A stretch of 64,000 nucleotides of DNA from Actinopolymorpha alba DSM 45243 (GTDB taxonomy: Bacteria; Actinomycetota; Actinomycetes; Propionibacteriales; Actinopolymorphaceae). The position numbers were made by a program, and so were the translations under genes. The stretch covers positions 1 to 64,000 of the forward strand of contig NZ_KB892755.1 of NCBI RefSeq assembly GCF_000373925.1, read 5' to 3'. The notes below the pieces were generated by a model that was given only the letters and a program-made list of their open reading frames with translations, was not told where the DNA came from and ran no database searches. Below are positions 20,034 to 33,905 of this stretch, one piece after another (the first letter of the stretch is position 1; each line of letters starts with the position of its first letter).

Positions 20034-20813
20034 CTACCAGCAGACGATCGTCTCGCCGGTGAGGTGGTCCGAGGCCGGTCCCGCGAGGAAGAGCACAATC
20101 GAGGCCATGTCGCCGGGTTGTGCGATGCGTTGCAGCGGCGACTTGTCGCTCTCATCGGCTACTTCACGAGTGGCGAGAAACCGGCCGGTGTAAGTAGGGC
20201 TCGGAGCAAGGCAGTTGACGTTGACGTTGAAAGGCCGAAGCTGTTCGGCCAAGCATCTGGTGTAGTGCGAGTTGGCCGCCTTCGCCGCGGCGTAGACAAT
20301 GCCTGTCCGGGCCGGCACGTGACCGGCGGTCGAGCCGATGTTGACGATCTTGCCGCTACGGCGTGTGCGCATGTGCTGGCCGGCGTACTTGCATGCGTAC
20401 ATCGTCGTCAACACGTTGCGTTCGACAACAGCGCGGATGTCGTCGGGGTCGATGTCCAACGCATCATTCGGATCCGGTCGTGGAGTGACGGCGCCAATGT
20501 CGCCGCCGGCGTTGTTGACAAGGATGTCGATCGTTCCGAACGACTCGATCACCTCCGAGACGAGTCGCTCGGACTGTGCTGCGTCGGTCAGGTCGGCCAT
20601 GTGAAAGCCCGATTGGCGGCCGAGCGCACGGATCTCCTTCGCCACCGCGATGCCCGACTCCGCTTCACCGAACCTGGCGGCCGCCGTCACGTCCACGTCG
20701 TGGATCGCCACGTCCGCGCCGTGCCGCGCCAGCTCCAGCGCATAGTGGCGGCCCAGGCCCCGGCTGGAACCGGTGACCAGGGCGACTTTGCCGGTAAGAT
20801 CCGGGGTTGTCAT
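20034..20813 (-). CDS. short-chain dehydrogenase/reductase (FabG-like)
   Basis: This 259-aa SDR has TGSSRGLG (residues 15-22), NNAG, NIGSTAGHVP and YAAAK as active-site elements. The C-terminus ends GETIVCW, shorter than the usual VDGG ending. The start ATG 20813 overlaps the stop of the TIM-barrel gene by four bases, so it is the last gene of a three-gene minus-strand set (SDR, TIM barrel, SDR). In that set it probably oxidises a polyol, sugar or hydroxy acid with NAD(P) (inference). Substrate unknown. Confidence 0.83.
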   Translation of the reverse strand: MTTPDLTGKVALVTGSSRGLGRHYALELARHGADVAIHDVDVTAAARFGEAESGIAVAKEIRALGRQSGFHMADLTDAAQSERLVSEVIESFGTIDILVNNAGGDIGAVTPRPDPNDALDIDPDDIRAVVERNVLTTMYACKYAGQHMRTRRSGKIVNIGSTAGHVPARTGIVYAAAKAANSHYTRCLAEQLRPFNVNVNCLAPSPTYTGRFLATREVADESDKSPLQRIAQPGDMASIVLFLAGPASDHLTGETIVCW

Positions 20814-21829
20814 CGACCTTGCCCTTCGCGAGTTCCTGGACCAAGGGTGCGCATCCGTTGCAGGGCTTGCAGGTAGCCGAGGCTCTCGGCCAGCTGCCGT
20901 TGTTCGTACGCGACGATCACCTCGGTGGGTTCGCCGCGTTCGAACGGCGTACGCCAGTCGCCGCTCGACCTGGCGTTGGCGTGCACCACCCGCAGCGCCT
21001 CAGCCAGCTGGGCCGGGGTCCTCGGCGGGTAGTCGGGCCAGAAGTCCGGGGCGAGCACCCGGATGTTTCGGGCCTCCAGCGCGCCGAGCTCGATCGCCAT
21101 GGTGACGCCGGGAACGGAGGCGTCGAGGATGTCGAGGAGGCCCGGGAAGTCGGTCAGGCCCTGTCCAAGCGGGCAACGGACCAGCAGGTATCCCTCCTCG
21201 CTCCACCAGGTCCAGTAGTCCTTCAGATGCACGTTCTTGACGAAGGGCGCGACCCGGCGGAAGTAGTCGACGGGCTCCTCGGCGGTGCCCAGCGGGTTAC
21301 CGGTGTCGAGGTTGATGCCGAAGTACGGCGAGTCGATGGATTCGCACAGCCACAGGAGTTCTTCCGACGCCAGGTCCTGGTGGTTCTCCACGGCCAGGTT
21401 GATGCCTGCGCGCTCGGCAGCACCGGCGGCGACCCGCAGCTTCGCCTGGACCTCGTTGAGGAAGGGTTGCCATCGCCCGGCCAGCGGTCGCCGGTCACCG
21501 CCGATCTTCGCGCCACCAACGACAGTGCGTACCGTGGGCGCGCCGATCTGTACGGCGATCTCGATCACGCGGGCGAGGTGGTCCGGCTCGTAGCCGCCGG
21601 TGTCAAGAGTGACGAACACATCCCGCTCTGCCGCGTACCGCCCCACCGCCGCAACGTCCTCACCCTCGAGCAGTCTGACCGGTAGCTCCACACCCGTCAG
21701 GCCCAATGCGAGAGCTTGGTCGATCACCGCGCGCGGAGTGATCGCGGGGCGGCCGGCCGCGGGGTGCAGGCCCATGCTGTACGTGGTGCCTGCCACTGTC
21801 AGCCCCACCCGCATTGTTGATGAACTCAT
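20810..21829 (-). CDS. xylose isomerase-like TIM-barrel (sugar phosphate isomerase/epimerase family)
   Basis: The 339-aa protein of the AP-endonuclease-2/xylose-isomerase-like barrel family carries the metal-binding strand ends: NLAVENHQDL, FGINLDTGNPLG, NVHLKDYW and MAIELGAL. Family members isomerise or epimerise sugars, inosose or keto acids with a divalent metal. ATG 21829 is chosen because it overlaps the stop of the upstream SDR (ATGA) and begins the conserved part (MRVGLTVAGTTYSMG a few codons later). It is coupled on both sides to SDR genes. Confidence 0.83.
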   Translation of the reverse strand: MSSSTMRVGLTVAGTTYSMGLHPAAGRPAITPRAVIDQALALGLTGVELPVRLLEGEDVAAVGRYAAERDVFVTLDTGGYEPDHLARVIEIAVQIGAPTVRTVVGGAKIGGDRRPLAGRWQPFLNEVQAKLRVAAGAAERAGINLAVENHQDLASEELLWLCESIDSPYFGINLDTGNPLGTAEEPVDYFRRVAPFVKNVHLKDYWTWWSEEGYLLVRCPLGQGLTDFPGLLDILDASVPGVTMAIELGALEARNIRVLAPDFWPDYPPRTPAQLAEALRVVHANARSSGDWRTPFERGEPTEVIVAYEQRQLAESLGYLQALQRMRTLGPGTREGQGR

Positions 21830-22593
21830 TGCGCTGTCCACCCTCCGTCGATCACCAACGTCGAACCCGTCATGAAACTCGACGCGTCGGAGGCGAGGAA
21901 GATCGCCGCGCCGGCGAGCTCTTCGGGGTTTCCCCAACGTCCTAAGGGAATCCGCTCGACGAAGTATTTGTTCGTCTCGGGGTTCTCGATCACAGGAATG
22001 TTCAGGTCGGTGGCGAACGGCCCTGGGCACAAGGCGTTCACCGTGATGCCGTGTCCGGCCCATTCCAGTGCGAGCACCTTGGTCAGCTGCATCACGGCTG
22101 CCTTGCTCGAGCAGTAGGCGCTGCGGTCGGGTAAGGCGGTCACGCCGAGCATCGATCCGACATTGATGACGCGGCCGTACTGCCTGGATTTCATGTGGGG
22201 CGAGACCGCACGTGCCAGCAGGTACGGCGCCTTGAGGTTGGTCGCCTGCACCAGATCCCAGCTCGCCTCGTCGAACTCCTCAACCGGCTTACGGATGTTC
22301 ACACCCGCGTTGTTGATCAGGATGTCCAGCCGACCGAACTGCTCCACCACCGCCGCGACCGCGCGTTCGACGTCGTCGGCCCGGGTCACGTCCGCGCCCA
22401 CCCCCAGGGTCCGCCGCCCGCTCGCGTCAGCGATGCCGGCCGCCGCCTGCTCGGCCTGTGCCTGTTGGCGGCTGACCACCGCGACCTCAGCACCCGCGCT
22501 GGCCAGTGCCGTCGCCATGACCAGCCCGAGGCCCCGGTTGCCGCCGGTGACCAGCGCGACCCGGCCGTCGAGCGCGAACGACTCCAACCCCAT
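21826..22593 (-). CDS. short-chain dehydrogenase, gluconate 5-dehydrogenase-like
   Basis: This 255-aa SDR has TGGNRGLG near residue 17, NNAGVNIRKPVEEF, NVGSMLG, YCSSK and the typical end FMTGSTLVIDGGW. The NNAGVNIRKP block is characteristic of gluconate 5-dehydrogenase and 2-deoxy-D-gluconate 3-dehydrogenase relatives. ATG 22593 follows GAGAGGGG at correct spacing; the ATG six codons further upstream lacks one. It is the first gene of a coupled SDR/TIM-barrel/SDR set, 197 bp downstream of the CoA-lyase gene on the same strand. A role in oxidising the sugar part of the imported compound is inferred. Confidence 0.85.
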   Translation of the reverse strand: MGLESFALDGRVALVTGGNRGLGLVMATALASAGAEVAVVSRQQAQAEQAAAGIADASGRRTLGVGADVTRADDVERAVAAVVEQFGRLDILINNAGVNIRKPVEEFDEASWDLVQATNLKAPYLLARAVSPHMKSRQYGRVINVGSMLGVTALPDRSAYCSSKAAVMQLTKVLALEWAGHGITVNALCPGPFATDLNIPVIENPETNKYFVERIPLGRWGNPEELAGAAIFLASDASSFMTGSTLVIDGGWTAQ

Positions 22594-22790
22594 GACGCGA
22601 ACCCCTCTCATCCGACGCAGCGGCCGGGCGGCTCCCGGCGCCGATCTTGAACGCCATTTCGAGCCCAGCCTCGGCCCAAGTTACTGAGGCGGCGAAGGAG
22701 CTTTGGGGAGTTGTTCACATAGCGGAGCGTGTACTCGGGCCGATTGCTGACAACCCGATCGCAGTCAACAGCACGTTGCGGGGGAAGCCC

Positions 22791-23654
22791 TTACGACGCT
22801 CCCTCCGAACCCGCCCCGGCAGGCGTTGTACCCGTCCGCTCGGCCAACTCAAGCACACGCTCGGCGCCGCGTCGCATCGCGACGTCCAGGAAACGTCCGT
22901 CTGCGAGTACGGCAGTGCCGTCGCCCGCGACCTCTGCCTGTGCGAGCGCGTCGATGACGGCCCGGGCACGGGCGACCTCCGTGGAGGAGGGCGCGAAGGC
23001 CGCCTCGATCACCGGTAGCTGTCGTGGATGGATCGCCGCGCGCCCGAGCATTCCCAGACTCCGCCCGACCTGGCAGGAACGCGCAAGCCGGGCGAGGTCG
23101 CTGACATCGGTGAACGCCGACATGGCGGGCGGGCGGAGTCCGGCAGCCGCCGACGCGACGACGATACGACTGCGTACCCAGCCCAGCGCGTCCTCCTCGC
23201 TGATCGCGAGCTGCGAGCACAGGTCGGCTTCACCCAGACCGATCGCGGCCACCTGCGGATGAGCGCTGGCGAGCTCGGCCGCGCGTTCAACGCCACGTGC
23301 GGACTCCAACAGCAACGTCAGGGCTCGACCTGTCCCAACCCGGGCGATGATCGTGGCTACGTCGTCGATCCGTTCGACCTTGGGTATACGTACGGAAACG
23401 TTCGGCGGTAGTACGGCCACCACGTCGAGATCGGCGGCCAACCACGCACTGTCGATGGCGTTGACGCGTACTTCCACGGCGCGGCCCGGGAACTCCTCGA
23501 CAACCTCCGCGAGAGCGGCCCGCGCAAGGGGTTTGTGGGCAGGGGCGACCGCGTCCTCGAGGTCGACGATCACCACGTCGGCGGCACTCGTCATGGCCTT
23601 GCGGATCCGCTCGGGTCGATCACCCGGAACGTACAACCAGGTCAACGCGGCCAT
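22791..23654 (-). CDS. HpcH/HpaI/CitE-family CoA-ester lyase
   Basis: The 287-aa citrate-lyase-beta-like TIM barrel shows LYVPGDRPERIRKAM, then DVVIVDLEDAVAP (acidic metal site), VRIPKVERIDD, LLLESARGVERA and GLGEADLCSQL, followed by GRAAIHPRQLPVI. Such enzymes cleave or form carbon-carbon bonds of CoA thioesters, for example malyl-CoA or citramalyl-CoA to acetyl-CoA plus a keto acid. Its start overlaps the CaiB-type gene stop (TGATG), so activation and cleavage of the same acid are likely successive steps (inference). Confidence 0.85.
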   Translation of the reverse strand: MAALTWLYVPGDRPERIRKAMTSAADVVIVDLEDAVAPAHKPLARAALAEVVEEFPGRAVEVRVNAIDSAWLAADLDVVAVLPPNVSVRIPKVERIDDVATIIARVGTGRALTLLLESARGVERAAELASAHPQVAAIGLGEADLCSQLAISEEDALGWVRSRIVVASAAAGLRPPAMSAFTDVSDLARLARSCQVGRSLGMLGRAAIHPRQLPVIEAAFAPSSTEVARARAVIDALAQAEVAGDGTAVLADGRFLDVAMRRGAERVLELAERTGTTPAGAGSEGAS

Positions 23655-24895
23655 CAGAGGACTCCCTGGTCGCGGAGTTCCTTGATCTCGGCTGGGTCCA
23701 GGCCAAGCTCGGTGAGGAAAGTGGCCGTGTCGGCGCCGTGCGCCCGACCCGTGAATCGGATCGTGGCGGGGCCGGCAGAGCTACCCGACGGTCCCGGTGG
23801 CCGCGACGGCTCCGACCCGCCGGAGCCGTCGGACAGCCGGAACAGCGAACCCTGCATCGCCATCCGCCCGAAGTCGGGATCGTCGACGTACTGAACCGTC
23901 CCGAGCGCCGCGAACTGCGGATCGGCCGCGATGTCGGCCGCGTCGTACACCGGCGCGACCGCCGCCTCGGCCGCCTCGAACGCCTCCAGCACCTCAGCCC
24001 GGGTACGCCCGGCCACCCAGCGCGCCACCGCCTCGTCGAGGACATCGGCATGCTCGGCCCGACCGGACCCGCTGGCGAACCATGGTTCGTCGATGACCTC
24101 CGGCCTCCCCACCAGCCGCATGACCCGCTCGGCGATGCTCTGCGCGCTGGTCGACACCGCGACCCAGCTGCCGTCGCTGGTGCGGTAGGTGTTGCGCGGC
24201 GCGTTGTTCGCCGACCGGTTGCCAGTGCGCGGCGCGATGGTGCCGAGTTGGTCCCAGCGGGTGATCTGGGGTCCGAGCATGGCGAGGATGGGTTCGATGA
24301 TCGCCACGTCAACGACCTGACCACGCCCGGTGGCCGCACGTGCGTGCAGTGCGGTCATGATGGCGAACGCCGTCGCCAACGACGCGACGCCGTCAGCCAG
24401 ACCGAACGGCGGAAGCGTCGGCGGACCATCCGGCTCACCGGTGAGGGACGCGAATCCGCTCATGGCCTCGGCCAGCGTGCCGAACCCCGGCCGGCGGCGG
24501 TAGGGACCAAGCTGGCCGAAGCCGGTGACGCGAGCGAGGACCAGCCCGGGGTTGGCCGCGGACAGTTGGGCGTACCCAAGGTTCCAGCGTTCCAAGGTGT
24601 CCGGGCGGAAGTTTTCGATCACGACGTCCGCCGTCTCGGCGATCCGGACGAACACCTCCTGCCCACGCGGCCGCGACAGGTCGAGGGTCACCGCCCGCTT
24701 GTTCCGGCCGAGCGTCTTCCACCAGAGGTTCTGGCCGTCCTTCGCCGGTCCGTGTCCGCGGGCCGGGTCGGGCCGGCGCGGATGCTCGATCTTGACGACC
24801 TCCGCGCCCAGGTCGCCGAGGTGCATCGCGGCCATCGGGCCAGCGAACAACGTCGACATATCGATGACCCGTAGACCGTCGAGTGGGGCGTTCAT
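23654..24895 (-). CDS. CaiB/BaiF-family (family III) CoA-transferase
   Basis: The 413-aa enzyme begins MNAPLDGLRVIDMSTLFAGP and has GAEVVKIEHP, NKRAVTLDLS, VVIENFRPDT, FGQLGPY and the catalytic aspartate region FGLADGVASL (Asp168). Family III transferases move CoA between carboxylates through an aspartyl intermediate. A Pro/Gly/Ser-rich insert (about residues 365-385) is atypical. It lies between the ADP-ribosylglycohydrolase cluster and the lyase gene in one operon, suggesting it activates an acid released or formed by upstream steps. Confidence 0.87.
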   Translation of the reverse strand: MNAPLDGLRVIDMSTLFAGPMAAMHLGDLGAEVVKIEHPRRPDPARGHGPAKDGQNLWWKTLGRNKRAVTLDLSRPRGQEVFVRIAETADVVIENFRPDTLERWNLGYAQLSAANPGLVLARVTGFGQLGPYRRRPGFGTLAEAMSGFASLTGEPDGPPTLPPFGLADGVASLATAFAIMTALHARAATGRGQVVDVAIIEPILAMLGPQITRWDQLGTIAPRTGNRSANNAPRNTYRTSDGSWVAVSTSAQSIAERVMRLVGRPEVIDEPWFASGSGRAEHADVLDEAVARWVAGRTRAEVLEAFEAAEAAVAPVYDAADIAADPQFAALGTVQYVDDPDFGRMAMQGSLFRLSDGSGGSEPSRPPGPSGSSAGPATIRFTGRAHGADTATFLTELGLDPAEIKELRDQGVL

Positions 24896-24918
24896 CGCGG
24901 GTCTCCTTCAGAGGTGTG

Positions 24919-26325
24919 TCATGAGGTCGACCGAAGCCGGTCGGCCACCGTCTTGGTGCGCGCGGCAAGGACGTCGAAACCGATCCCGTCGAAGCCCGCG
25001 AGGGTCGAGGCGAGCCGGTTGTCCAGGGGGCTGATCCACGACTGAGGAAGTGCCCGCGCCCCGGTGAGTGCCCCGACGATCGAGCCGACGGTCGCGCCGT
25101 TGGAGTCGGTGTCCCAGCCACCGCTCACCGCGTGGGTGATGCTCGCGGAGTAGTCGCCGTCGCCGTACGCCAGTGCCGCGACGACCAGCGCGGTGTTGTT
25201 CAGGACATGGACCCAGTGCAGGTTGCCGTAGCGTTCCGCGATGGCGTCAACGGCGTCCTCGAAGTCGGCATGGGTGGCCGGCAGATCGCGGGCGAAGCGC
25301 ACCGCCTCCGCGTACCTCGACTGTGGGGGTACGACGTCGAGCGCCGCATCGAGCACCTCGTCCACGCGGTCAGCCACCAGTGCCGCGGCGCTCGCGGCCG
25401 CGACGAACATCTCGCCGTACACGCCGTTGCCGGTGTGGGTGAGCACCGCGTCGCGCCAGGCGAGTCGCGCCGCTCTGGCCGGATCGCCGGGTGCGGCCCA
25501 GCCGAAGACGTCGCCGCGGATCTGGGCGCCGATCCACTCCTGGAACGGATTGCGGACCCGCGCGCACCGCTGAGGCGGGTATCCAAGCAGGAGGTTGCGG
25601 TAGGCGACCCGCTCGGCGGTGAAAACCCGACCCGCGGGTAGCGCCTCGAGCCAGCGCTGCGCGATGTCCTCGGTCGTAACGGACGCACCATGGTCTTCGA
25701 GCAGCGCGAGGTTGAGCAGCGGGAAGTTCAGGTCGTCGTCCTCGGGCATGCCCGCGATGTTCTCGACGAGTGACGTTGGCGCGCTGCGCCGATTCCATGG
25801 CCAGCGGGCCGCGACCTCAGCCGGCAGATCACGTTCAGTGAAGTACGCATGTAACGGCCAGCGCCCCTGCGACTGAAGGATCTCCCGGATGCCCCGGCGG
25901 GGGATCTTCTCGACCGGCTTGCCCAGCAGGCAGCCAGCCGCGCGGCCGAGCCACGCACCGTGGTACCGATCCATCGACGGGGCGCCCGGCGACGGGGACG
26001 CGGCAGCCGGTGCGGCCGGTGCCGCGGGCGCGGCCGATGCGGAGTCCCGGAGCGCGGGGGCGAGGTGGGCGATCTCCGGCAGGTCGGTGGGTTCGCGGTC
26101 GGCGTACGGCGATGGGAGGGCGTCGAGCTCGTCGAGGAGCCGCTCGGCCAGCGCCCGCAGCTCCGCCGAGAACGGCAGGTCCGATGCGCCGGCATGGAGG
26201 GGACGGGGGTCGCCGCCGGCGTCGACCCATTGCGCGCGCAGGGCCGCCACGTCGAGGCGAGCGAGTTCAGCCCGGTGGAGCGCGTGCCCCACCAGATCCG
26301 GCGGCTGGATCCAGGTCAGTCTCAT
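24919..26325 (-). CDS. ADP-ribosylglycohydrolase family protein, paralog 1 (long)
   Basis: The 468-aa protein has a unique N-terminal part of about 115 residues ending in an Ala/Pro/Ser linker, then the all-helical DraG/ARH-type domain. The usual GDxxG motif is replaced by GCLLGKPVEK (131-140). The metal-site aspartates appear as MPEDDDLN (193-200) and GWDTDSNG (403-410), giving a likely binuclear Mg/Mn centre. Relatives hydrolyse N- or O-glycosidic bonds to ADP-ribose, but many bacterial members have unknown small-molecule substrates. ATG 26325 overlaps the stop of paralog 2 (TGATG). Confidence 0.85.
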   Translation of the reverse strand: MRLTWIQPPDLVGHALHRAELARLDVAALRAQWVDAGGDPRPLHAGASDLPFSAELRALAERLLDELDALPSPYADREPTDLPEIAHLAPALRDSASAAPAAPAAPAAASPSPGAPSMDRYHGAWLGRAAGCLLGKPVEKIPRRGIREILQSQGRWPLHAYFTERDLPAEVAARWPWNRRSAPTSLVENIAGMPEDDDLNFPLLNLALLEDHGASVTTEDIAQRWLEALPAGRVFTAERVAYRNLLLGYPPQRCARVRNPFQEWIGAQIRGDVFGWAAPGDPARAARLAWRDAVLTHTGNGVYGEMFVAAASAAALVADRVDEVLDAALDVVPPQSRYAEAVRFARDLPATHADFEDAVDAIAERYGNLHWVHVLNNTALVVAALAYGDGDYSASITHAVSGGWDTDSNGATVGSIVGALTGARALPQSWISPLDNRLASTLAGFDGIGFDVLAARTKTVADRLRSTS

Positions 26326-27518
26326 CACGACGCCTGCGCTGGAGCGGTCTCGGACGGCGGGCGCTGAGTGGCGCCCGTCAGCGCGTCGAACGCCGCGTCC
26401 GCAGCCGCGCGGCGGGCCCCGTCCGCCTTCCGGATCGTCTCTGTGGCCTGTACCAGCCGGGCAATCGGCCCCTCCAGGTCGAGGCGGCTTGCCGTACCCA
26501 CCGCCTCGACGAGATCGGCCGGAACCACGTCGCGGCCGCCGAGCGCTCCGGCGATCGCACCGGCCATGGTGGCGATCGAGTCGGAGTCGCGGCCGTAGTT
26601 GACCCCACCCAGAACGGCATCGGTCCACTGTCCGCCGGACAGGACCACCATCCCCAGCGCCACCGGCAACTCCTCGATGGAATGCAGGCGACTTGGTCGG
26701 CGGGCACCGAGGCCCTGGTCCCGGTAGTCGTCGCCGACCGTGTCGAACTCCCGCATCGCCGCTCGCAGAACGCCAGAGGTGATCGCGTCGGTCCAGTGGT
26801 CCGCGGCCTGCGCCGCCTCGACGACCCGCTCGATCGCCGCGCGGGTACCGTCCTTCGCCAACCGCAAGGCGTCGTTGACAACCTGGTCGATGGTGGCGCC
26901 CGGCCGCAGCGCGCTGGCCACTGCGGCCGCCATCACCCCGGCCGCCTCGCGACCGTACGACGTCTGGTGGGCGCCGGCGATGTCGATCGCTTCGGCGTAC
27001 GCTCCATCTGGATCGCCCGCGTTCACCACTCCTACGGGTGCGACGTACATCGCCGCGCCGCAGTTCACCGCGTTGCCGACGCCGCCTTCGCGCGGATCGG
27101 CATGCGCCCAGTTCAGGCGCAGGGCCATGTGCTTCTCGGCGAGGAAGACCCGCTGCAAGGGGAGCGCCATGCTTTCGAGTTCGGGCACCCAGACCGGCGT
27201 ACTGATCATCTTCGGCACCAGGCGTTCGGCCACGTCGTACGCCGTCAGGTGCGCGTTGGCCTCGGCGTACACCTCGATCAGTAGGTTCGTCATCAAGGTG
27301 TCATCCGTCACGTGCCCGTCGCCCTTGTGGTACGGCGCGATCGGGCGTGCCTCGCGCCAGTTGGCGTAGTACGGCGGGACGATCCCCTCCACCCATCCGC
27401 CCCACCGGGCGCGGATCTGGTCGGGGCTCCAGCCCTCGGTGGCTCCGCCCAGGGCGTCGCCGACGGCCGCTCCTAACAGGCATCCAGCAGCACGGTCAAA
27501 GAGGGCTCCCGCTGTCAC
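26325..27518 (-). CDS. ADP-ribosylglycohydrolase family protein, paralog 2
   Basis: The 397-aa canonical member has CLLGAAVGDALGG (13-25), GHVTDDTLMTNLL (68-80) and NYGRDSDSIATMAGAI (307-322), the full set of aspartates that bind the two metal ions. It has a GTG start at 27518 after AAGGA; the frame stays open upstream over paralog 3, but that part is arginine-rich out-of-frame sequence. It is followed by paralog 1 with a TGATG overlap and lies 29 bp after paralog 3. Probably a cytosolic glycohydrolase acting on the compound imported by the adjacent ABC transporter (inference). Confidence 0.87.
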   Translation of the reverse strand: MTAGALFDRAAGCLLGAAVGDALGGATEGWSPDQIRARWGGWVEGIVPPYYANWREARPIAPYHKGDGHVTDDTLMTNLLIEVYAEANAHLTAYDVAERLVPKMISTPVWVPELESMALPLQRVFLAEKHMALRLNWAHADPREGGVGNAVNCGAAMYVAPVGVVNAGDPDGAYAEAIDIAGAHQTSYGREAAGVMAAAVASALRPGATIDQVVNDALRLAKDGTRAAIERVVEAAQAADHWTDAITSGVLRAAMREFDTVGDDYRDQGLGARRPSRLHSIEELPVALGMVVLSGGQWTDAVLGGVNYGRDSDSIATMAGAIAGALGGRDVVPADLVEAVGTASRLDLEGPIARLVQATETIRKADGARRAAADAAFDALTGATQRPPSETAPAQAS

Positions 27519-27547
27519 AGTTGTTCCTTTCGAAGGTCGGGCCGGGC

Positions 27548-28624
27548 TTATGAGGCGAACTCGCCCGAGGACGGCGTGGCCGGTTCCACAACGGTGGGGA
27601 GCCGGGCGGCCAGGTCGATGAGGTCGATGCCGGCGAGGTCGGGCCGGCAGCAGCCGCTGCTCGTCCGGCACCGGTCCACCCAGGCCGCCGGGAGCGCCGC
27701 GAGTCCGCGGGCGGCCCCGATCACGGCGCCGGTGAGGGCCGGGGCTGAGTCCGCGAGTCGTGGGAGGCAGGCCGCGGCGGCGATCGCCTCGGCCGGTCCC
27801 ACGCCGGTCCGCAGCGCCGTCGCTGCCATCGCGCACGCCACCGCGACCGTCTCCGCGGCGGCGACGCCGTAGCTGTAGACGACATCGAGATGGTCGTCGA
27901 GCAAGGCCGCGGCGTCCATCGGCCCGGAGGCGGTCCGGCCGATCTCGCGGGCGCGGCCTACGTTGCGGCCGATCAGGCTCAGCTCCGGCAGGTACGCCTG
28001 GGCGAGGTCGAGGGCCGCGTCGAGTTCGGTCCCTCCGACACAGGCCGCGACGAGCGCCGCGACCGCCTTCGCCGCGTGTACGCCGTCCTCAGCGTTGGTC
28101 ACCTCGGCATCCCAGCCGGCAAGCTCGGCGGCGCGTTCGGGGCTGCTCGCGTAGACCCCGAACGTCACCGCGCGGACCGCGGCCGCATCGTCGAAGTGGT
28201 GCGGATTGTGCTGTCCGGTCAGCGGAATCTCGCGGCCGCGTACGAGCGCGTCGGCGGCCGTGGCGACGCTGATCCGACCACGGGGCAGGGTTCCTTCCCG
28301 GGCCGCCGCGCGCCACTGCTGGTGGACGCAATCCCGGGTGGGGTGGGGGCCGAGGGCCAGCAGCCACTGCGCGGTCCACACCACCCAGTCGGTGTCGTCG
28401 GCGGGTCCAAGGTGAAGGGGTGCCGTGGGCTGATTGAGGGCGAAGGGCACCGGGAGGGTGGTGACCTCCGCGTCTTCGGCAAAGGTGTCGAGCTCGCGGC
28501 GGATCCGGCGGGTCCAGGCCGGTAGCAGGAGGGAACGATGCTGACGCGCTGGCCAGCCGGCGGCATCGCCGACAGCGAGGCCCACCAGTGCGCCGGACCG
28601 GCGTTCCGCAAGCGCGGCGCTCAT
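27548..28624 (-). CDS. ADP-ribosylglycohydrolase family protein, paralog 3 (degenerate metal site)
   Basis: The 358-aa member has an intact GLAVGDAAGW (15-24) and an altered second motif GPADDTDWVVW (73-83). The C-terminal motif, normally GxDTDT or GRDSDS, reads LADSAPALTGAVIGAARG, so one or two metal-binding aspartates are missing. It may be a regulatory or structural partner of the intact paralogs or have a changed mechanism. ATG 28624 overlaps the stop of paralog 4 (ATGA), so the two are coupled. The end SGCCRPDLAGID carries two neighbouring cysteines. Confidence 0.82.
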   Translation of the reverse strand: MSAALAERRSGALVGLAVGDAAGWPARQHRSLLLPAWTRRIRRELDTFAEDAEVTTLPVPFALNQPTAPLHLGPADDTDWVVWTAQWLLALGPHPTRDCVHQQWRAAAREGTLPRGRISVATAADALVRGREIPLTGQHNPHHFDDAAAVRAVTFGVYASSPERAAELAGWDAEVTNAEDGVHAAKAVAALVAACVGGTELDAALDLAQAYLPELSLIGRNVGRAREIGRTASGPMDAAALLDDHLDVVYSYGVAAAETVAVACAMAATALRTGVGPAEAIAAAACLPRLADSAPALTGAVIGAARGLAALPAAWVDRCRTSSGCCRPDLAGIDLIDLAARLPTVVEPATPSSGEFAS

Positions 28625-29634
28625 GCGCGTCCTTCCAAACGAGGCGTCGTGGATCTCAGTCCTGCCGTCACCAGCCGCTCGGCCAGCTCGTCCATCCGCT
28701 GACCAGCGACGACCTCGCCGAGGCACCGTCCCCTCACCACCCCGGCGGCGCGCCGCCAGTCCGCCGGGATCACCGACTCTCCCCCGAACGCACCGCTGAG
28801 CGCGCCGGCGATGGCAGCGGTCGTATCGGCATCCCGGCCCATGGCGACGGCACCCGTCACCGCTCGCCGGAACTCGCCGTCCGCCCGCAGGAACGCCGCG
28901 AACGCCAGCCCCAGTGCCTCCGGGCCGAGATCAGTCCACGGGTAGCGCCGCGTGACGAGGGCGTCCAAGATCTGCTCGGCGGACCAGGACCCGGCTGCGG
29001 CGTGCATCGCCGTACCCAATCCGGCCGCCGTCCACGACGTGGCCGGAACAGCGGCGAGCGCGTAGTCAGTCGCGGTCCGCGGATCAGCGCCGCCCATCAA
29101 TGCCGCGACCGCGGCGGCGACCGCCGCACCAGCATGAACGCCTTCGCCGCTGTGGCTGACCGAACCATCAATGCGGGCCAACTTCGCCGCCGTGCCGGGG
29201 TCACCTGGCGCGAAGACGCCGTACACCGCCGCCCGCATGGCGAGTCCGTCGCTCCATCCGTGCAGGTGCTGGCCGGTGTCTGGTGGTTGCAGGCCGGCCA
29301 GCAGGTTGACGATGGTCCCGAGTTCGCTGAAACCCGCGCCGGGAAAGCCACCCTGGCGGCCAACCAGGTGCTGGCGGTAGGCGTCAGCGATGTGCGCGGC
29401 CGACAGAGAATGCCCGTGTTCGAGGAGCAACAGCGCACTGAACGCGGCGTACTCCGTGTCGTCAGTGCCGCTCGGCTGCTCGGTAAGGAAGCCGGTGATC
29501 TCGCCCCAACGCTCGCGGATCGCCTGCGCTGTCATGTTCTCCGCTGGTGCGCCCATGGCGTCGCCGACGGCCAGACCGAGCAGGCAGCCACGAGCCCGCC
29601 TATGGGCGTCAGGTATGGATACCTGCTCGGTCAT
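28621..29634 (-). CDS. ADP-ribosylglycohydrolase family protein, paralog 4
   Basis: The 337-aa canonical DraG/ARH-type protein has GCLLGLAVGDAMGAP (16-30), SGTDDTEYAAF (55-65) and AVAMGRDADTTAAIAGAL with all expected aspartates. ATG 29634 is preferred over GTG 29646 because GAGG sits six to seven bases upstream. It is the first of the four paralogs, 40 bp after the ABC binding-protein gene and coupled to paralog 3. The set of four diverged members in one operon suggests cooperation on one complex substrate or on several related ones. Confidence 0.87.
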   Translation of the reverse strand: MTEQVSIPDAHRRARGCLLGLAVGDAMGAPAENMTAQAIRERWGEITGFLTEQPSGTDDTEYAAFSALLLLEHGHSLSAAHIADAYRQHLVGRQGGFPGAGFSELGTIVNLLAGLQPPDTGQHLHGWSDGLAMRAAVYGVFAPGDPGTAAKLARIDGSVSHSGEGVHAGAAVAAAVAALMGGADPRTATDYALAAVPATSWTAAGLGTAMHAAAGSWSAEQILDALVTRRYPWTDLGPEALGLAFAAFLRADGEFRRAVTGAVAMGRDADTTAAIAGALSGAFGGESVIPADWRRAAGVVRGRCLGEVVAGQRMDELAERLVTAGLRSTTPRLEGRA

Positions 29635-29674
29635 GGGTGTCCTCACTTCTTACAGGTCGGGGAACCAGGCTCGC

Positions 29675-30970
29675 TCAGCGTTGGTAGCGCTCGAGGATGC
29701 CGTTGCCGTCCTTGACGAGCTTCTGGCCGAGCTGGTCGATCGTGATCCGGTCCTGGAAGTACTCCTGGATGGACGGGTTCGCGATCTTGTTCTTCCACTC
29801 CTCATAGCCCTTGACCGTCTGGAAGGGCGCCTTCTGCAGGAAGGACCCGGACGCGACGGCGACCTCCCAGCCAGGCGTCTTGGTCAGCACTGGGTCGTCA
29901 AGAGCGCCTTGACTGGCCGGCACCATGGCGTCGCCGTTCGCGAGGCGGGCTTGGTTCTTGGGGCTGAGGAAGAACTCCATGAACTTCACGGCTTCTTCGG
30001 GATGCTTGGTGTCAGCCGATACCGAAAGCGTCTGAGGTGCTGCGGCCTGGGTCTGGCTGGTGCCTTTCAGTGCCGGGATCGTGACCCACTCGAAGTCCTT
30101 CGGCGCCTGCTCGATGATCTGTTGGCGGAGCCAGATACCGCTTGGCACCATTGCGAACTTGCCGTCGAAGAACGCGGGAAGGGTGTCGGCGCCGCCCATG
30201 CCGATCGCCTCCGGAGCGGCGATCTTGTCCTTGTAGAGCATGTCGTGGATGCGCTGGAGAACGACCTTCTCCGGTGCGCCGAAGACCGCCTGGGACTTGT
30301 CGTCCTGTTGGGCGAAGAACTTCCCATCGAAGTTGAGGGAGAGGTTGAGGATCCGGTTCGCCGGCGACTTCAAGGCGAACGCCGCGCCGTACCGTCCTTG
30401 CTTCGTCAGCTTCTTCGCATTGGCGGTGAACTCGTCCCAGGTCCAGGGGTCGTCCGGTGCCGGGACCTTGATTCCGGCTTCGTCCAGGAGCTTCTTGTTG
30501 GCGAAGACCACAAAGGCGTCGAGCAGGAATGGCATGCCGTAGACGCCGTCGTCGAAGGTCGCGGTGTCCCAGATCGCGGGCCGGATATCCCTGCGGGTCT
30601 TGTCCGTCAGGTAGTCGTTGAGGTCGAGAAGGTTCCCGCGATCGGCGAAGTCGCGAAGGTACGACGACTCGTAATGAAAGATGTCGGGCGCGGTCCCGCC
30701 TTCAAATCCGGTGACGAGCTGGTCCTGGACGGACCCCCAGTCGCCCTGGACGTACTCCACCTTCACATTCGGGTTGGCCTTGTTCCATTCCGCCACGATC
30801 TCCTTGTTGGCGGCGATGGACTCAGGCTGGAACGCCAGACTCTGGAAACGCAGCGAGATGGGTTCCTTCGGGGAGCCCGCCTCATTGGTGCCGGAGCCGG
30901 CGCCGCAACCGGCGGCGATGAGAGCGCCGGCGGCGACAAGTGCGGCGGCAGCGCGGACGCGGTGTCGCAT
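29675..30970 (-). CDS. carbohydrate ABC transporter substrate-binding lipoprotein (family 1)
   Basis: The 431-aa lipoprotein has signal peptide and lipobox LIAAGC (Cys22), then a family 1 extracellular solute-binding fold (PNVKVEYVQGDWGSVQDQL, GTAPDIFHYESSYL, YGMPFLLDAFVVFANKKLL, GKFAMVPSGIWLR). AAGGAGGA precedes ATG 30970. It captures a sugar or glycoside for the two permeases encoded upstream. No ATPase gene is present in the locus, as is common for MalEFG-type systems in actinobacteria that share a general MsiK-like ATPase. Confidence 0.9.
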   Translation of the reverse strand: MRHRVRAAAALVAAGALIAAGCGAGSGTNEAGSPKEPISLRFQSLAFQPESIAANKEIVAEWNKANPNVKVEYVQGDWGSVQDQLVTGFEGGTAPDIFHYESSYLRDFADRGNLLDLNDYLTDKTRRDIRPAIWDTATFDDGVYGMPFLLDAFVVFANKKLLDEAGIKVPAPDDPWTWDEFTANAKKLTKQGRYGAAFALKSPANRILNLSLNFDGKFFAQQDDKSQAVFGAPEKVVLQRIHDMLYKDKIAAPEAIGMGGADTLPAFFDGKFAMVPSGIWLRQQIIEQAPKDFEWVTIPALKGTSQTQAAAPQTLSVSADTKHPEEAVKFMEFFLSPKNQARLANGDAMVPASQGALDDPVLTKTPGWEVAVASGSFLQKAPFQTVKGYEEWKNKIANPSIQEYFQDRITIDQLGQKLVKDGNGILERYQR

Positions 30971-31003
30971 TCTTCCTCCTTCAGTAAGGCTTGGGGTGGT
31001 TGC

Positions 31004-31843
31004 TCAGGACTTCACGGCGCCGCTCAGCAGCCCGCTGGTGAGATGACGTTGGATGATCGCGAAGAAGATGAGACTGGGAATGGTCGCGACGAGTGAAGCC
31101 GCCGCGAGTGCTCCCAGCCGGGCTACCCCCTCTGCGCCGATGAACTTCACCAGCGTCAAGGACAGCGTCGACAATTCAGGACTCTTGAGCAGGACCAGCG
31201 CGAAGAAGAACTCATTCCAGGCGGAGACGAACGTGAACAATGCGGTTGCCACGACACCGGGCACCAGCAGCGGTGCGAGGATTTCGCGGATCATCCGGAC
31301 TCGGCTCGCTCCGTCGATGGCGGCGGCTTCTTCGACTTCGATGGGAATGCTCTGGACGTGGCTGCGCAGCATCCACAGCGCGAACGGCATGCTCCACACG
31401 ATGTAAACGATGATCAGGCCCAGGTGGGTGTCGAAGAGCCCGAAATCTCGCACGATCAGAAAGAGCGGGATGATCACGAGAATGAACGGGAAGATCTGGC
31501 TGAGCAGCACCCATACCATCGTCGACTTGCCGACGATGGAGCGATATCGGGCCATCACGTAGGCGCCAGGTACAGCCAGGCCCACCGTGACCAGTGACGA
31601 GACGCCCGCGACATAGAGCGTGTTGAGGATGGAACGCAGGATCGGTTGCTGTTCGAACGCCGTACGGAAGTTCTCCAGCGTCGGGTGGATCGGAATCACC
31701 GTCGGGTCGATCCGGGCGATCTCCTGCGGCGTCTTGAGGGCGGTGGAGATCAGCCACCACAGCGGAAAGGCGAGAAAGACCAGATAGCCGGCCAGGGCGA
31801 GGTACTGCAATGCGCGCCGCGACGGGCTGGTGCGGGTCATCAT
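31004..31843 (-). CDS. carbohydrate ABC transporter permease (MalG type)
   Basis: The 279-aa permease has six predicted helices, the MalG-type loop PTLENFRTAFEQQPILRSI, and coupling motif EEAAAIDGASRVRMIREILAP (about residues 190-210) for the ATPase. It ends SGLLSGAVKS, as usual for the family. Two bases separate it from the MalF-type gene and 33 bp from the binding-protein gene, so the three are one transcription unit. Confidence 0.9.
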   Translation of the reverse strand: MMTRTSPSRRALQYLALAGYLVFLAFPLWWLISTALKTPQEIARIDPTVIPIHPTLENFRTAFEQQPILRSILNTLYVAGVSSLVTVGLAVPGAYVMARYRSIVGKSTMVWVLLSQIFPFILVIIPLFLIVRDFGLFDTHLGLIIVYIVWSMPFALWMLRSHVQSIPIEVEEAAAIDGASRVRMIREILAPLLVPGVVATALFTFVSAWNEFFFALVLLKSPELSTLSLTLVKFIGAEGVARLGALAAASLVATIPSLIFFAIIQRHLTSGLLSGAVKS

Positions 31844-31844
31844 G

Positions 31845-32843
31845 TCAGTCGTCCTCCCGCATCCGGATACGTAGGTAGAACACGACGAAGAGAGCGATCA
31901 CGATCACCATCGCGTTACCAAGAGCCGCCGCGTAGCCGTAGTTGCCGTAGCGGAATGCCTCCTCGTAGGCGAACAGCAGCGGCAGTCTGGTTTCTCCGCC
32001 GGGCCCGCCCTGGGTGAGCACATAGACCAGGCCGAAGGAGTTGAAGTTCCAGATGAAGTCCAGCGTGGTGATTGCCACAATGATGGGGCGCAGGTGGGGC
32101 AGGGTGACAGACCAGAATCTGCGCCAGCTTCCCGCGCCGTCGACGGCCGCCGCCTCGTGCAACTCCTGGCGTACCCCCTGCAGGCCGGCCAGGAGGACCA
32201 CCGTCGTTTGCGGCATCCCAGCCCAGACGGCCACCAGGATGACCGCGGGCAAAGCCAGCTCGGCCGTATTGAGCCAGTCGACATCGCGACTGATAAGCCC
32301 AAGGTCTCCCAGAATGGTGTTGAGGATGCCGGCATTCGGGTGATAGACGAGCCGCCACATGATGCCGATCACGACCGGCGGCATCGCCCAGGGCACCAGT
32401 GCGAGTGTCCGCGCGAGCCACCTCATCCGCAACGGCTCGTTGAGCAGGAGGGCGAGCCCGAAGGCAAGGAAAAACTGCAGGGCCGTTACGGCGACGGCCC
32501 AGATCAGGCCGATCCGGAAGGACGACCAGAAGTACGAATCGCCGAGGAGCTGTGCGTAGTTTTCGAAACCGGTGAAGCTGGTCACGGAGTTCCGGCCGGC
32601 GCGAGCATCGGTGAACCCGAGGTAGATCCCGCGCAGCAGGGGATAAACGCTGAACGCAACGATCGGTAGGAGTGCCGGAATCACCAGGATGAGGCCGTCC
32701 CGGTCGAGCCCGAGAAGCGTACGCCGGCCCGACGGGCGGCCGGACCCGTGCCGACCCGGCGTACGACCGGGTTGACGGCCTGCCGTCCGGCGCCGACCTG
32801 CCTGCGCCGAGGTGCCTTCGGGCACCGTCGTTGACCGGCTCAT
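31845..32843 (-). CDS. carbohydrate ABC transporter permease (MalF/UgpA type)
   Basis: The 332-aa permease has a long Arg/Gly-rich cytoplasmic N-terminus (residues 1-45), six helices starting at LILVIPALLPIVAFSVYPLL, the family segment GFTDARAGRNSVTSFTGFEN and coupling motif HEAAAVDGAGSWRRFWSVTLP. Its start overlaps the LacI-type gene stop by four bases. It forms the translocation pore with the MalG-type protein. Confidence 0.9.
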   Translation of the reverse strand: MSRSTTVPEGTSAQAGRRRTAGRQPGRTPGRHGSGRPSGRRTLLGLDRDGLILVIPALLPIVAFSVYPLLRGIYLGFTDARAGRNSVTSFTGFENYAQLLGDSYFWSSFRIGLIWAVAVTALQFFLAFGLALLLNEPLRMRWLARTLALVPWAMPPVVIGIMWRLVYHPNAGILNTILGDLGLISRDVDWLNTAELALPAVILVAVWAGMPQTTVVLLAGLQGVRQELHEAAAVDGAGSWRRFWSVTLPHLRPIIVAITTLDFIWNFNSFGLVYVLTQGGPGGETRLPLLFAYEEAFRYGNYGYAAALGNAMVIVIALFVVFYLRIRMREDD

Positions 32844-33832
32844 CTGCTGCTCTCCCGAATGTTGAGGGAAGGCTCGACCGCGACGCGAGTGCGTGCGGCG
32901 GCGCGGCCGGCCAGCCGATCGAGCAGCAACTGGGCCGCCAACTGCCCGCGTTGAGCCGCACCGAGGTCGACGCTGGTGAGCGGCGGGTAGGCGGTCGCGG
33001 CCAACTCCGTGTCGTCGATGCCGACCACCTTGACGTCGCGAGGAACGACCCGGCCGGCTTCCCGAAGCGCCTGCATGGCGCCGATCGCGATCCGGTCGTT
33101 CGCGCCAACCAGCCCGTCGATCGGAGTGCCCGCGAGCAGGTCCTTGGTCGCCTCGAGCCCGCCAGCGATGTGGAAGTTGGTGAAGCGTACGAGCTCGTCA
33201 CGTACCGGCAGGCCGGCCGAGCGGAGTCCGTCCACGTAACCGGCGTACCTCGCTGATCCCGGCGTTGTGTCGGCTGGCCCGTTGACCAGGGCAATGTCTC
33301 GGCAGCCGGCAGCCGCGAGGTGCTCGACCGCCAGCCTGGTGCCAGTGCGGGAGTCCGCCCGCACAGCGTCCACGTCCACGGTCTCCGGCAGCGAGCCGAT
33401 GACCACGACCGGGACGGCCGTTTGGGCCAAGGCCGCGAGGTGCCGGTCGGTGACTCGGATGGGGCACAACACCAGACCGTCCACATAATGCTGGTTGAGG
33501 CTTTCCAGGACCTGGATCTCCTCCCCGACGTCTGCGCCGGTGCTGTGCAGCAGAAGGCGATAGCCCGCGCTACGCAGAAGCGGCTGGATCGCTCGCACCA
33601 TCGCCAGGTAGGCCGGGTTGCCGATGTCCTCCATCGCGAACGCGATCTGGCCGGTGTGCCGCGTCTTCAGCGTCTGCGCGGCCGCACTCGGGAGGTAGCC
33701 GACCTGCGCCGCCGCGGCCCGGACCCGCGCGACGGTGTCAGGATTCGAGGTCTGGCCGTTGAGCGCCCGCGACACCGACGAGATCGACACGCCGGCGGCC
33801 TGCGCCACTGTCTTGATCGTCGCGCGCGCCAT
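32840..33832 (-). CDS. LacI-family transcriptional regulator
   Basis: The 330-aa regulator has N-terminal helix-turn-helix and hinge TIKTVAQAAGVSISSVSRAL (residues 5-24) and a sugar-binding core (IAFAMEDIGNPAYLAMVRAI, VDGLVLCPIRVTD, DGLVGANDRIAIGAMQ). ATG 33832 is chosen: AAGGA lies five bases upstream, whereas ATG 33838 would sit on it. It is the first gene of the whole minus-strand locus and lies 28 bp from two perfect LacI-type operators, so it should repress its own operon until an inducer derived from the substrate binds. Confidence 0.92.
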   Translation of the reverse strand: MARATIKTVAQAAGVSISSVSRALNGQTSNPDTVARVRAAAAQVGYLPSAAAQTLKTRHTGQIAFAMEDIGNPAYLAMVRAIQPLLRSAGYRLLLHSTGADVGEEIQVLESLNQHYVDGLVLCPIRVTDRHLAALAQTAVPVVVIGSLPETVDVDAVRADSRTGTRLAVEHLAAAGCRDIALVNGPADTTPGSARYAGYVDGLRSAGLPVRDELVRFTNFHIAGGLEATKDLLAGTPIDGLVGANDRIAIGAMQALREAGRVVPRDVKVVGIDDTELAATAYPPLTSVDLGAAQRGQLAAQLLLDRLAGRAAARTRVAVEPSLNIRESSR

Positions 33833-33859
33833 GGTCATCCTTCCAGGCACCTAGGGGTT

Positions 33860-33905
33860 GGAAACGTTTCCGACCTGGCCCGACCGATGTCTCGGAAACG
33901 TTTCC
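33860..33905. promoter_or_regulatory. two LacI-family operators GGAAACGTTTCC
   Basis: Identical perfect 12-bp palindromes occur at 33860-33871 and 33894-33905, centres 34 bp apart (about three helical turns), directly upstream of the lacI-type gene. The central CG and AAACGTTT core are typical of LacI/GalR-family sites. Same-face spacing would allow cooperative binding or a small loop. Confidence 0.85.

What the first reader, a model, noticed from the sequence alone, without database searches (positions are those of the whole stretch)
20034..33905. LacI-controlled catabolic locus with four ADP-ribosylglycohydrolase paralogs, a CoA-transferase and a CoA-ester lyase
Seen: thirteen co-oriented genes, mostly overlapping or within 40 bp, behind two perfect LacI operators: lacI, malF, malG, malE, four DraG/ARH-type paralogs, caiB-like, citE/hpcH-like, then (after 197 bp) SDR, TIM-barrel isomerase, SDR. 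Known: DraG/ARH-fold enzymes cleave glycosidic bonds at ADP-ribose; family III CoA-transferases and CitE-type lyases degrade organic acids. Inferred: an imported glycoside (nucleoside-like or ribosylated metabolite) is hydrolysed by several glycohydrolases, the sugar is oxidised and isomerised, and the acid is activated with CoA and cleaved. I know of no described pathway with this gene set.
Basis: partly seen in the sequence, partly recalled or inferred. Interest (0 to 1): 0.85.

Follow-up and report, generated by a model that had tools for sequence, protein, structure and literature searches.

The report
Conserved glycoside uptake and breakdown operon
The window carries one copy of a gene cluster, found in many soil bacteria, that probably imports an unidentified sugar-plus-acid compound, cuts off the sugar with enzymes so far labelled ADP-ribosylation erasers, and breaks the acid down through coenzyme A.

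Summary
In detail: ten co-oriented genes (lacI, malF, malG, malE, four PF03747/ARH paralogs, caiB, citE) lie behind two perfect GGAAACGTTTCC operators 34 bp apart, a site pair unique in the 8 Mb genome. The SDR-TIM-SDR trio does not belong: it occurs without the cluster in related genomes, and none of 89 orthologous loci contains it. The cluster is a conserved actinobacterial cassette. Of 80 GTDB-genome loci chosen by ARH4 similarity alone, 78 have caiB, 77 citE, 79 ARH3, 66 a ribokinase-like kinase (missing here) and 57 malFGE. Every caiB locus has either the ARH1-ARH2 pair (sometimes fused) or an amylase-fold protein; six have both, suggesting that ARH1-ARH2 does a glycosidase step. ARH1, ARH3 and ARH4 keep both metal motifs; ARH2 has lost one Asp. 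By synteny these are Streptomyces coelicolor SCO2028-SCO2031, described as uncharacterised ADP-ribosylation hydrolases; SCO2028 and SCO2030 were inactive on uracil-ADP-ribose. Best reading: a LacI-controlled catabolic operon that imports a ribofuranosyl-type conjugate of an organic acid, cleaves it with ARH-fold glycosidases, and degrades the acid by CoA transfer and CitE-type cleavage. The compound is unknown and no step has been assayed.

The parts
33894..33905 (.). LacI-type operator, distal copy (GGAAACGTTTCC)
   Evidence: Perfect palindrome; the 13-mer CGGAAACGTTTCC is found only at this pair in the 8 Mb genome; paired sites about 33-36 bp apart precede lacI in Jiangellaceae, Amycolatopsis, Promicromonospora
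33860..33871 (.). LacI-type operator, proximal copy (GGAAACGTTTCC)
   Evidence: As above; 34 bp from the distal copy
32840..33832 (-). LacI-family regulator
   Evidence: ORF from ATG 33832; closest cluster homologs in Jiangellaceae, 343-446 bits
31845..32843 (-). MalF-like CUT1 ABC permease
   Evidence: ORF; ortholog in 57 of 80 loci
31004..31843 (-). MalG-like CUT1 ABC permease
   Evidence: ORF; ortholog in 57 of 80 loci
29675..30970 (-). MalE-like extracellular solute-binding lipoprotein
   Evidence: PF01547 157.9 bits; no NCBIfam cut-off reached
28621..29634 (-). ARH1: ARH-fold hydrolase with both metal motifs (DDT, DADT)
   Evidence: PF03747 177.5 bits; motifs near invariant in orthologs
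27548..28624 (-). ARH2: degenerate ARH paralog, probable partner of ARH1
   Evidence: PF03747 99 bits; first Asp of the C-terminal motif absent in the window and all 25 alignable orthologs; fused in frame to ARH1 in L071, L083, L104, L110, L112
26325..27518 (-). ARH3: ARH-fold hydrolase with both metal motifs (DDT, DSDS)
   Evidence: PF03747 168.3 bits; ortholog in 79 of 80 loci
24919..26325 (-). ARH4: ARH-fold hydrolase with an extra N-terminal helical region of about 115 aa
   Evidence: PF03747 186.1 bits; AlphaFold model pLDDT 90 matches DraG and ARH3 structures
23654..24895 (-). CaiB-like family III CoA-transferase
   Evidence: PF02515 401.9 bits; presumed catalytic Asp168 in all 86 rows with a residue; ortholog in 78 of 80 loci
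22791..23654 (-). CitE/HpcH-type CoA-ester lyase
   Evidence: PF03328 90.4 bits; presumed metal ligands Glu117 and Asp144 in all 88 rows with a residue; ortholog in 77 of 80 loci

Best explanation
This is one copy of a conserved actinobacterial catabolic operon. A LacI repressor on two operators holds it off until its ligand is present (inferred). The MalEFG transporter takes up a glycoside or short glycoconjugate (inferred from family). ARH-fold, two-metal enzymes hydrolyse its furanosyl, most likely ribosyl, bonds: ARH3, ARH4, and ARH1 working with the degenerate ARH2 (fold and metal motifs shown, reaction inferred). The freed pentose is phosphorylated by a ribokinase, encoded in the cluster in most relatives and presumably supplied from elsewhere in this genome. 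The freed organic acid receives CoA from the CaiB-type transferase, and the CitE-type lyase cleaves the acyl-CoA to an acetyl-CoA-type product plus a short oxo-acid (inferred from family chemistry). SDR2, TIM and SDR1 are not part of it.
For: Conserved order and content in 80 loci chosen by ARH4 similarity alone: caiB 78, citE 77, ARH3 79, ribokinase-like PFK 66, malFGE 57, lacI 55. Same architecture in 11 genomes of the window's order. Kinase scores at or near the ribokinase equivalog cut-off (299.5, 297.9 and 243.6 bits against 299.65). Every one of 78 caiB loci has ARH1-ARH2 or an amylase-fold protein, six have both (L094 has a cut-off ARH1); that protein models as an alpha-amylase-like barrel, Z 17.4 over 322 residues. 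Other ARH4 relatives also sit with LacI, sugar ABC and ribokinase genes (Mycolicibacterium plasmid, Deinococcus plasmid). Metal motifs of ARH1, ARH3, ARH4 and presumed catalytic residues of CaiB and CitE are conserved. Operators are local and conserved in kind. SCO2028 and SCO2030, the likely ARH1 and ARH3 orthologs, showed no activity on U-alpha-ADPr (PMC13036486).
Against: The substrate is unknown, and nothing tested links the acid to the sugar chemically. The window itself lacks the kinase; the own-genome ribokinase (59% identity to the Haloactinopolyspora cluster kinase, C62) has no operator. Many Streptomyces copies lack lacI and malFGE, so dedicated import is not obligatory. CitE, CaiB and MalE fall below every NCBIfam function cut-off. 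The 80 loci are the best-scoring relatives, not a random sample, and genes were called mechanically.
Confidence: 0.6

Rival explanations
1. The ARH paralogs reverse ADP-ribosylation of proteins or nucleic acids, as the Streptomyces literature assumes, and the neighbouring genes are incidental.
For: PF03747 family and DraG/ARH3 fold. PMC5087735 and PMC9411070 list SCO2028-SCO2031 among ADP-ribosylation hydrolases.
Against: Below the DraG and Tri1 equivalog cut-offs (best 54.6 of 337 and 43.1 of 490 bits). Constant company of caiB, citE and kinase, often with sugar transporter and LacI. No ADP-ribosyltransferase among the ten cassette genes. SCO2028 and SCO2030 inactive on U-alpha-ADPr.
Confidence: 0.08
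2. A nucleoside-like or NAD-derived riboside is salvaged: the ARH enzymes act as N-ribohydrolases and the CoA genes degrade the acid made from the base.
For: ARH enzymes act on alpha-ribosyl bonds (general knowledge); ribokinase-like partner; a distant Rhizobium ARH4 relative sits with a PnrA/BMP-type ABC importer, a family that includes nucleoside transporters.
Against: The transporter here is CUT1 MalEFG, not the BMP type; an alpha-amylase-like protein as alternate partner points to a sugar-sugar or O-glycosidic bond; no deaminase or base-degrading gene among the cassette genes.
Confidence: 0.2
3. The substrate is an oligosaccharide carrying an ester-linked or side-chain organic acid. The sugar need not be ribose, and the CoA genes only handle the acyl decoration.
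For: CUT1 transporter; alpha-amylase-like domain fused to an FGE-fold domain in relatives; a Deinococcus ARH has a C-terminal extension of about 390 aa without Pfam match.
Against: Kinase scores best as ribokinase; no esterase seen as a constant member of the cassette (esterase ORFs were not searched for systematically).
Confidence: 0.2

Closest known systems
Streptomyces coelicolor SCO2028-SCO2031 (DraG/ARH homologues; PMC9411070, PMC5087735, PMC13036486)
   Same: Inferred to be the same four paralogs in the same order: Streptomyces loci L082, L095 and L104 lie between gltBD and lgt/trp, which fits the consecutive locus tags and the trp genes near SCO2038
   Different: Described as ADP-ribosylation hydrolases; the caiB, citE, ribokinase and transporter context is not mentioned in the passages read. 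The S. coelicolor sequence itself was not compared
LacI + CUT1 ABC + ARH + ribokinase modules (Mycolicibacterium arabiense plasmid, Deinococcus aetherius plasmid)
   Same: Regulator, sugar transporter, ARH4 homolog and ribokinase side by side
   Different: No CoA-transferase or CitE lyase in the stretches shown; fewer ARH paralogs
Bacteroides thetaiotaomicron ribose-utilisation (rus) locus (recalled, paper not held)
   Same: From memory: ADP-ribosylglycohydrolase, ribokinases, nucleoside hydrolase and transporter for scavenging ribose
   Different: SusCD import and no CaiB/CitE; resemblance only, not tested here
Itaconate degradation (RipABC) and other CoA-transferase plus CitE-type lyase pairs
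   Same: CoA-transferase step followed by a CitE-family lyase; CitE scores best against RipC among NCBIfam models (142.5 bits)
   Different: Far below the RipC cut-off of 375; no RipA/RipB search was made; CaiB here is family III, best model succinate-glutarate CoA-transferase (222 of 750 bits)

Membership tests
ADP-ribosylglycohydrolase superfamily (PF03747) | Pfam gathering score | tested here: met
   99 to 186 bits against 26.2 for all four
ADP-ribosylglycohydrolase superfamily (PF03747) | Both metal-binding motifs | tested here: met
   Met for ARH1, ARH3, ARH4; the next row gives ARH2
Catalytically complete ARH (ARH2 only) | D-x-D-(T/S) C-terminal metal motif | tested here: not met
   First Asp replaced by L, V or H in the window and all 25 alignable orthologs
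DraG, ADP-ribosyl-[dinitrogen reductase] hydrolase (TIGR02662) | Equivalog score cut-off 337.05 | tested here: not met
   Best 54.6 bits (ARH1)
ADP-ribosylarginine hydrolase Tri1 (NF041672) | Equivalog score cut-off 490 | tested here: not met
   Best 43.1 bits
ADP-ribosylation hydrolases | Activity on an ADP-ribosylated substrate | not testable with these tools
   Literature only: likely orthologs SCO2028 and SCO2030 inactive on U-alpha-ADPr (PMC13036486)
Family III CoA-transferase (PF02515) | Family score and presumed catalytic Asp | tested here: met
   401.9 bits; Asp168 in all 86 rows with a residue
Citrate lyase beta subunit (TIGR01588) | Equivalog score cut-off 443.4 | tested here: not met
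   127.4 bits
Itaconate C-C lyase RipC (NF038242) | Equivalog score cut-off 375 | tested here: not met
   142.5 bits
CUT1 sugar ABC transporter | Binding protein and two permeases | tested here: met
   malE passes PF01547; malF and malG identified by ORF and homology only
CUT1 sugar ABC transporter | ATPase subunit | not tested
   None among the ten genes; a shared ATPase elsewhere is common in actinobacteria (general knowledge), not searched
Ribokinase (TIGR02152), kinase of relatives | Equivalog score cut-off 299.65 | tested here: inconclusive
   299.5, 297.9 and 243.6 bits in three relatives; gene absent from the window cluster

The most novel reading that the evidence does not exclude
An undescribed catabolic pathway, widespread in Actinobacteria and possibly core in Streptomyces, in which two-metal ARH-fold enzymes are catabolic glycosidases (one an active/degenerate ARH1-ARH2 pair interchangeable with an amylase-fold enzyme) that free ribose from a ribosyl conjugate of an organic acid, the acid then being degraded by a CoA-transferase and a CitE-type lyase. 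Four of the eight DraG/ARH homologues listed for S. coelicolor would then not belong to ADP-ribosylation signalling.
Probability: 0.45. Interest if true: 0.78.

Novelty: new variant of a known kind. Interest (0 to 1): 0.6.

Why it matters
A conserved, LacI-controlled cassette assigns a probable catabolic role to a set of proteins that the literature counts as ADP-ribosylation erasers. This makes testable why Streptomyces encodes so many ARH homologues and so few ADP-ribosyltransferases. It also suggests that the ARH fold serves as an ordinary metal-dependent glycosidase, and it points to an unidentified, apparently common soil metabolite that joins a pentose to an organic acid.

Tried and rejected
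SDR2-TIM-SDR1 as oxidising and isomerising steps: rejected, separate unit. A kinase or glycosidase remnant in the window: only 23 bp lie between ARH4 and caiB; the glycosidase-like gene has no full-length match in the genome, and the best kinase is elsewhere, beside a dapA-like/sialidase pair by eye, not ARH genes. A first class-wide genome search returned no usable answer. A loop near the GNG/AMR motif as a test for ADP binding: dropped, because MJ1187 deviates there too. Substrate guesses (bacillithiol-like malate glycosides, methanopterin's ribosyl-hydroxyglutarate, HMG glycosides): no supporting gene found, not claimed. The sigma-70 promoter scan upstream of lacI found nothing. Plasmid-record annotation gave only six ARH4 relatives. 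Literature searches for the gene set found no description. The FGE-fold domain in relatives as a formylglycine-generating enzyme: unlikely, only one Cys column is conserved there.
Full report
OBSERVATION. The window region 22791-33832 (- strand) holds lacI, malF, malG, malE, four ADP-ribosylglycohydrolase-family genes (called ARH1 to ARH4 here in operon order), caiB and citE. Neighbours overlap by up to 4 bp or lie 1 to 40 bp apart. Upstream of lacI are two perfect GGAAACGTTTCC palindromes, 34 bp apart; the 13-mer CGGAAACGTTTCC occurs nowhere else in the 8 Mb genome. Similar paired or single LacI-type sites precede lacI in most orthologous loci. The regulator therefore most likely acts on this operon alone.

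WHAT DOES NOT BELONG. SDR2, TIM and SDR1 (20034-22593) are separated from citE by 197 bp. The TIM protein is found at 71-76% identity in all seven other genomes of the window's family searched, and in none of the 50 genomes of other families of the order. The seven family genomes do not have the ARH-CoA cluster, only more distant ARH4 paralogs (at most 48% identity). In five family genomes inspected, the SDR and TIM genes lie next to genes unrelated to the cluster. None of the 89 orthologous loci that carry caiB (78 plus 11 of the window's order) has the TIM or SDR1 gene; only weak, generic SDR matches turn up.

THE CONSERVED CASSETTE. Counts: ARH3 79, caiB 78, citE 77, kinase 66, malF/malG/malE 57, lacI 55, GH-FGE gene 45, ARH1 39, ARH2 33 as separate best hits. 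Eleven further genomes of the window's order carry the cassette with kinase and GH-FGE. Five Streptomyces loci (L086, L096, L105, L107, L117) have exactly the window's gene set, four of them with a similar ARH4-caiB spacing of about 20-26 bp. The loci were chosen by ARH4 similarity, not by neighbours, but they are the best matches and not a random sample. More distant ARH4 paralogs in relatives (L047-L052, L054, L056) lack caiB and citE, so the CoA pair goes with this ARH4 clade. A tree of ARH3 places the window inside a Jiangellaceae plus Pseudonocardia nigra clade (100/100 support), while searched members of its own genus lack the cluster; this suggests, but does not prove, horizontal acquisition.

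THE GAP GENES. In most relatives the ARH4-caiB gap holds a PfkB kinase and often a protein of about 660 residues. The kinase scores 299.5, 297.9 and 243.6 bits on the ribokinase equivalog (cut-off 299.65). The larger protein models with moderate confidence (pLDDT 76) as an alpha-amylase-like TIM barrel (Z 17.4, rmsd 4.0, 322 residues) plus an FGE-fold domain (Z about 15, 178-187 residues). Its barrel has invariant Asp188, Glu211 and Glu213, and its FGE part has only one well conserved Cys, so it is probably a glycosidase whose FGE domain is not a copper enzyme. A shared fold does not show the reaction.

ARH1-ARH2 AND THE GLYCOSIDASE-LIKE ALTERNATE. Of 78 caiB loci, 38 have the amylase-fold protein only, 33 ARH1 only, 6 both, and 1 scored as neither; that one (L094) has an ARH1 cut by the contig end. 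ARH1 and ARH2 are fused in one frame in L071, L083, L104, L110 and L112. ARH1 keeps both metal motifs in nearly all orthologs; ARH2 lacks the first Asp of the second motif in every alignable case. The simplest reading is an active subunit with a degenerate partner that does the same job as the amylase-fold protein. The pattern has phylogenetic structure, so the 78 loci are not 78 independent events.

STREPTOMYCES COELICOLOR LINK. In L082, L095 and L104 the genes lie between gltBD and lgt/trp (identified by eye). Four consecutive DraG/ARH homologues SCO2028-SCO2031 are listed in PMC9411070, and trp genes near SCO2038 in PMC5036795. I infer that SCO2028-SCO2031 are ARH1-ARH4; the S. coelicolor sequence was not compared. 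The literature treats them as uncharacterised ADP-ribosylation hydrolases. SCO2028 and SCO2030 had no detectable activity on uracil-alpha-ADP-ribose (PMC13036486). One substrate does not exclude others.

MECHANISM. Shown: gene content, order, conservation, operators, folds and conserved motifs. Inferred from family knowledge: import of a glycoside, cleavage of furanosyl bonds by the metal-dependent ARH enzymes, phosphorylation of the pentose by ribokinase, CoA transfer to the acid, and CitE-type cleavage. That the sugar is ribose rests on the kinase score and on the known alpha-ribosyl specificity of the ARH family. The acid is unknown; CaiB and CitE fall below every NCBIfam functional cut-off. 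In this genome the kinase step would have to come from another locus; the closest kinase (C62, 59% identity to the Haloactinopolyspora cluster kinase) has no copy of the operator.

WIDER CONTEXT. A Mycolicibacterium and a Deinococcus plasmid carry LacI, CUT1 transporter, ARH4 homolog and ribokinase together without the CoA genes. A Rhizobium plasmid has an ARH4 relative beside a BMP-type ABC importer. This suggests an older riboside-scavenging module to which the CoA pair was added in Actinobacteria. A similar ribose-scavenging locus in Bacteroides (rus) is recalled from memory and could not be checked in the held library.

VERDICT. The finding is real, conserved and apparently undescribed as a unit in the papers that could be searched. 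It is a new variant of a known kind (sugar-catabolic ABC operon), with an unusual enzyme set and a concrete re-reading of named but uncharacterised Streptomyces proteins.

Noticed in passing
window 20034-22593: SDR2-TIM-SDR1 form a separate unit conserved in the window's family (TIM in 8 of 8 family genomes, the window's included) and absent from 50 genomes of other families of the order; its function was not pursued.
   Followed up: partly
L057:12275-14245: In relatives, an alpha-amylase-like TIM barrel fused to an FGE-fold domain without the cysteine pair; Pfam names only the FGE part.
   Followed up: partly
L139:11989-14091: Deinococcus aetherius plasmid: a 700-aa protein with an N-terminal ARH domain and a C-terminal half of about 390 aa without Pfam match, next to a ribokinase and another ARH.
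   Followed up: partly
L140:3701-9765: Rhizobium plasmid with a BMP/PnrA-type ABC importer directly beside an ARH4 relative, possibly a riboside importer.
   Followed up: no
L116:2500-14217: Microbacterium elymi has a rearranged copy: caiB-citE upstream of lacI, then ARH3, ARH4, ARH1 and a kinase.
   Followed up: no
L052:1562-3964: The window's own genome has a second ARH4 paralog (contig C53) beside a phytanoyl-CoA dioxygenase (PhyH) gene.
   Followed up: no
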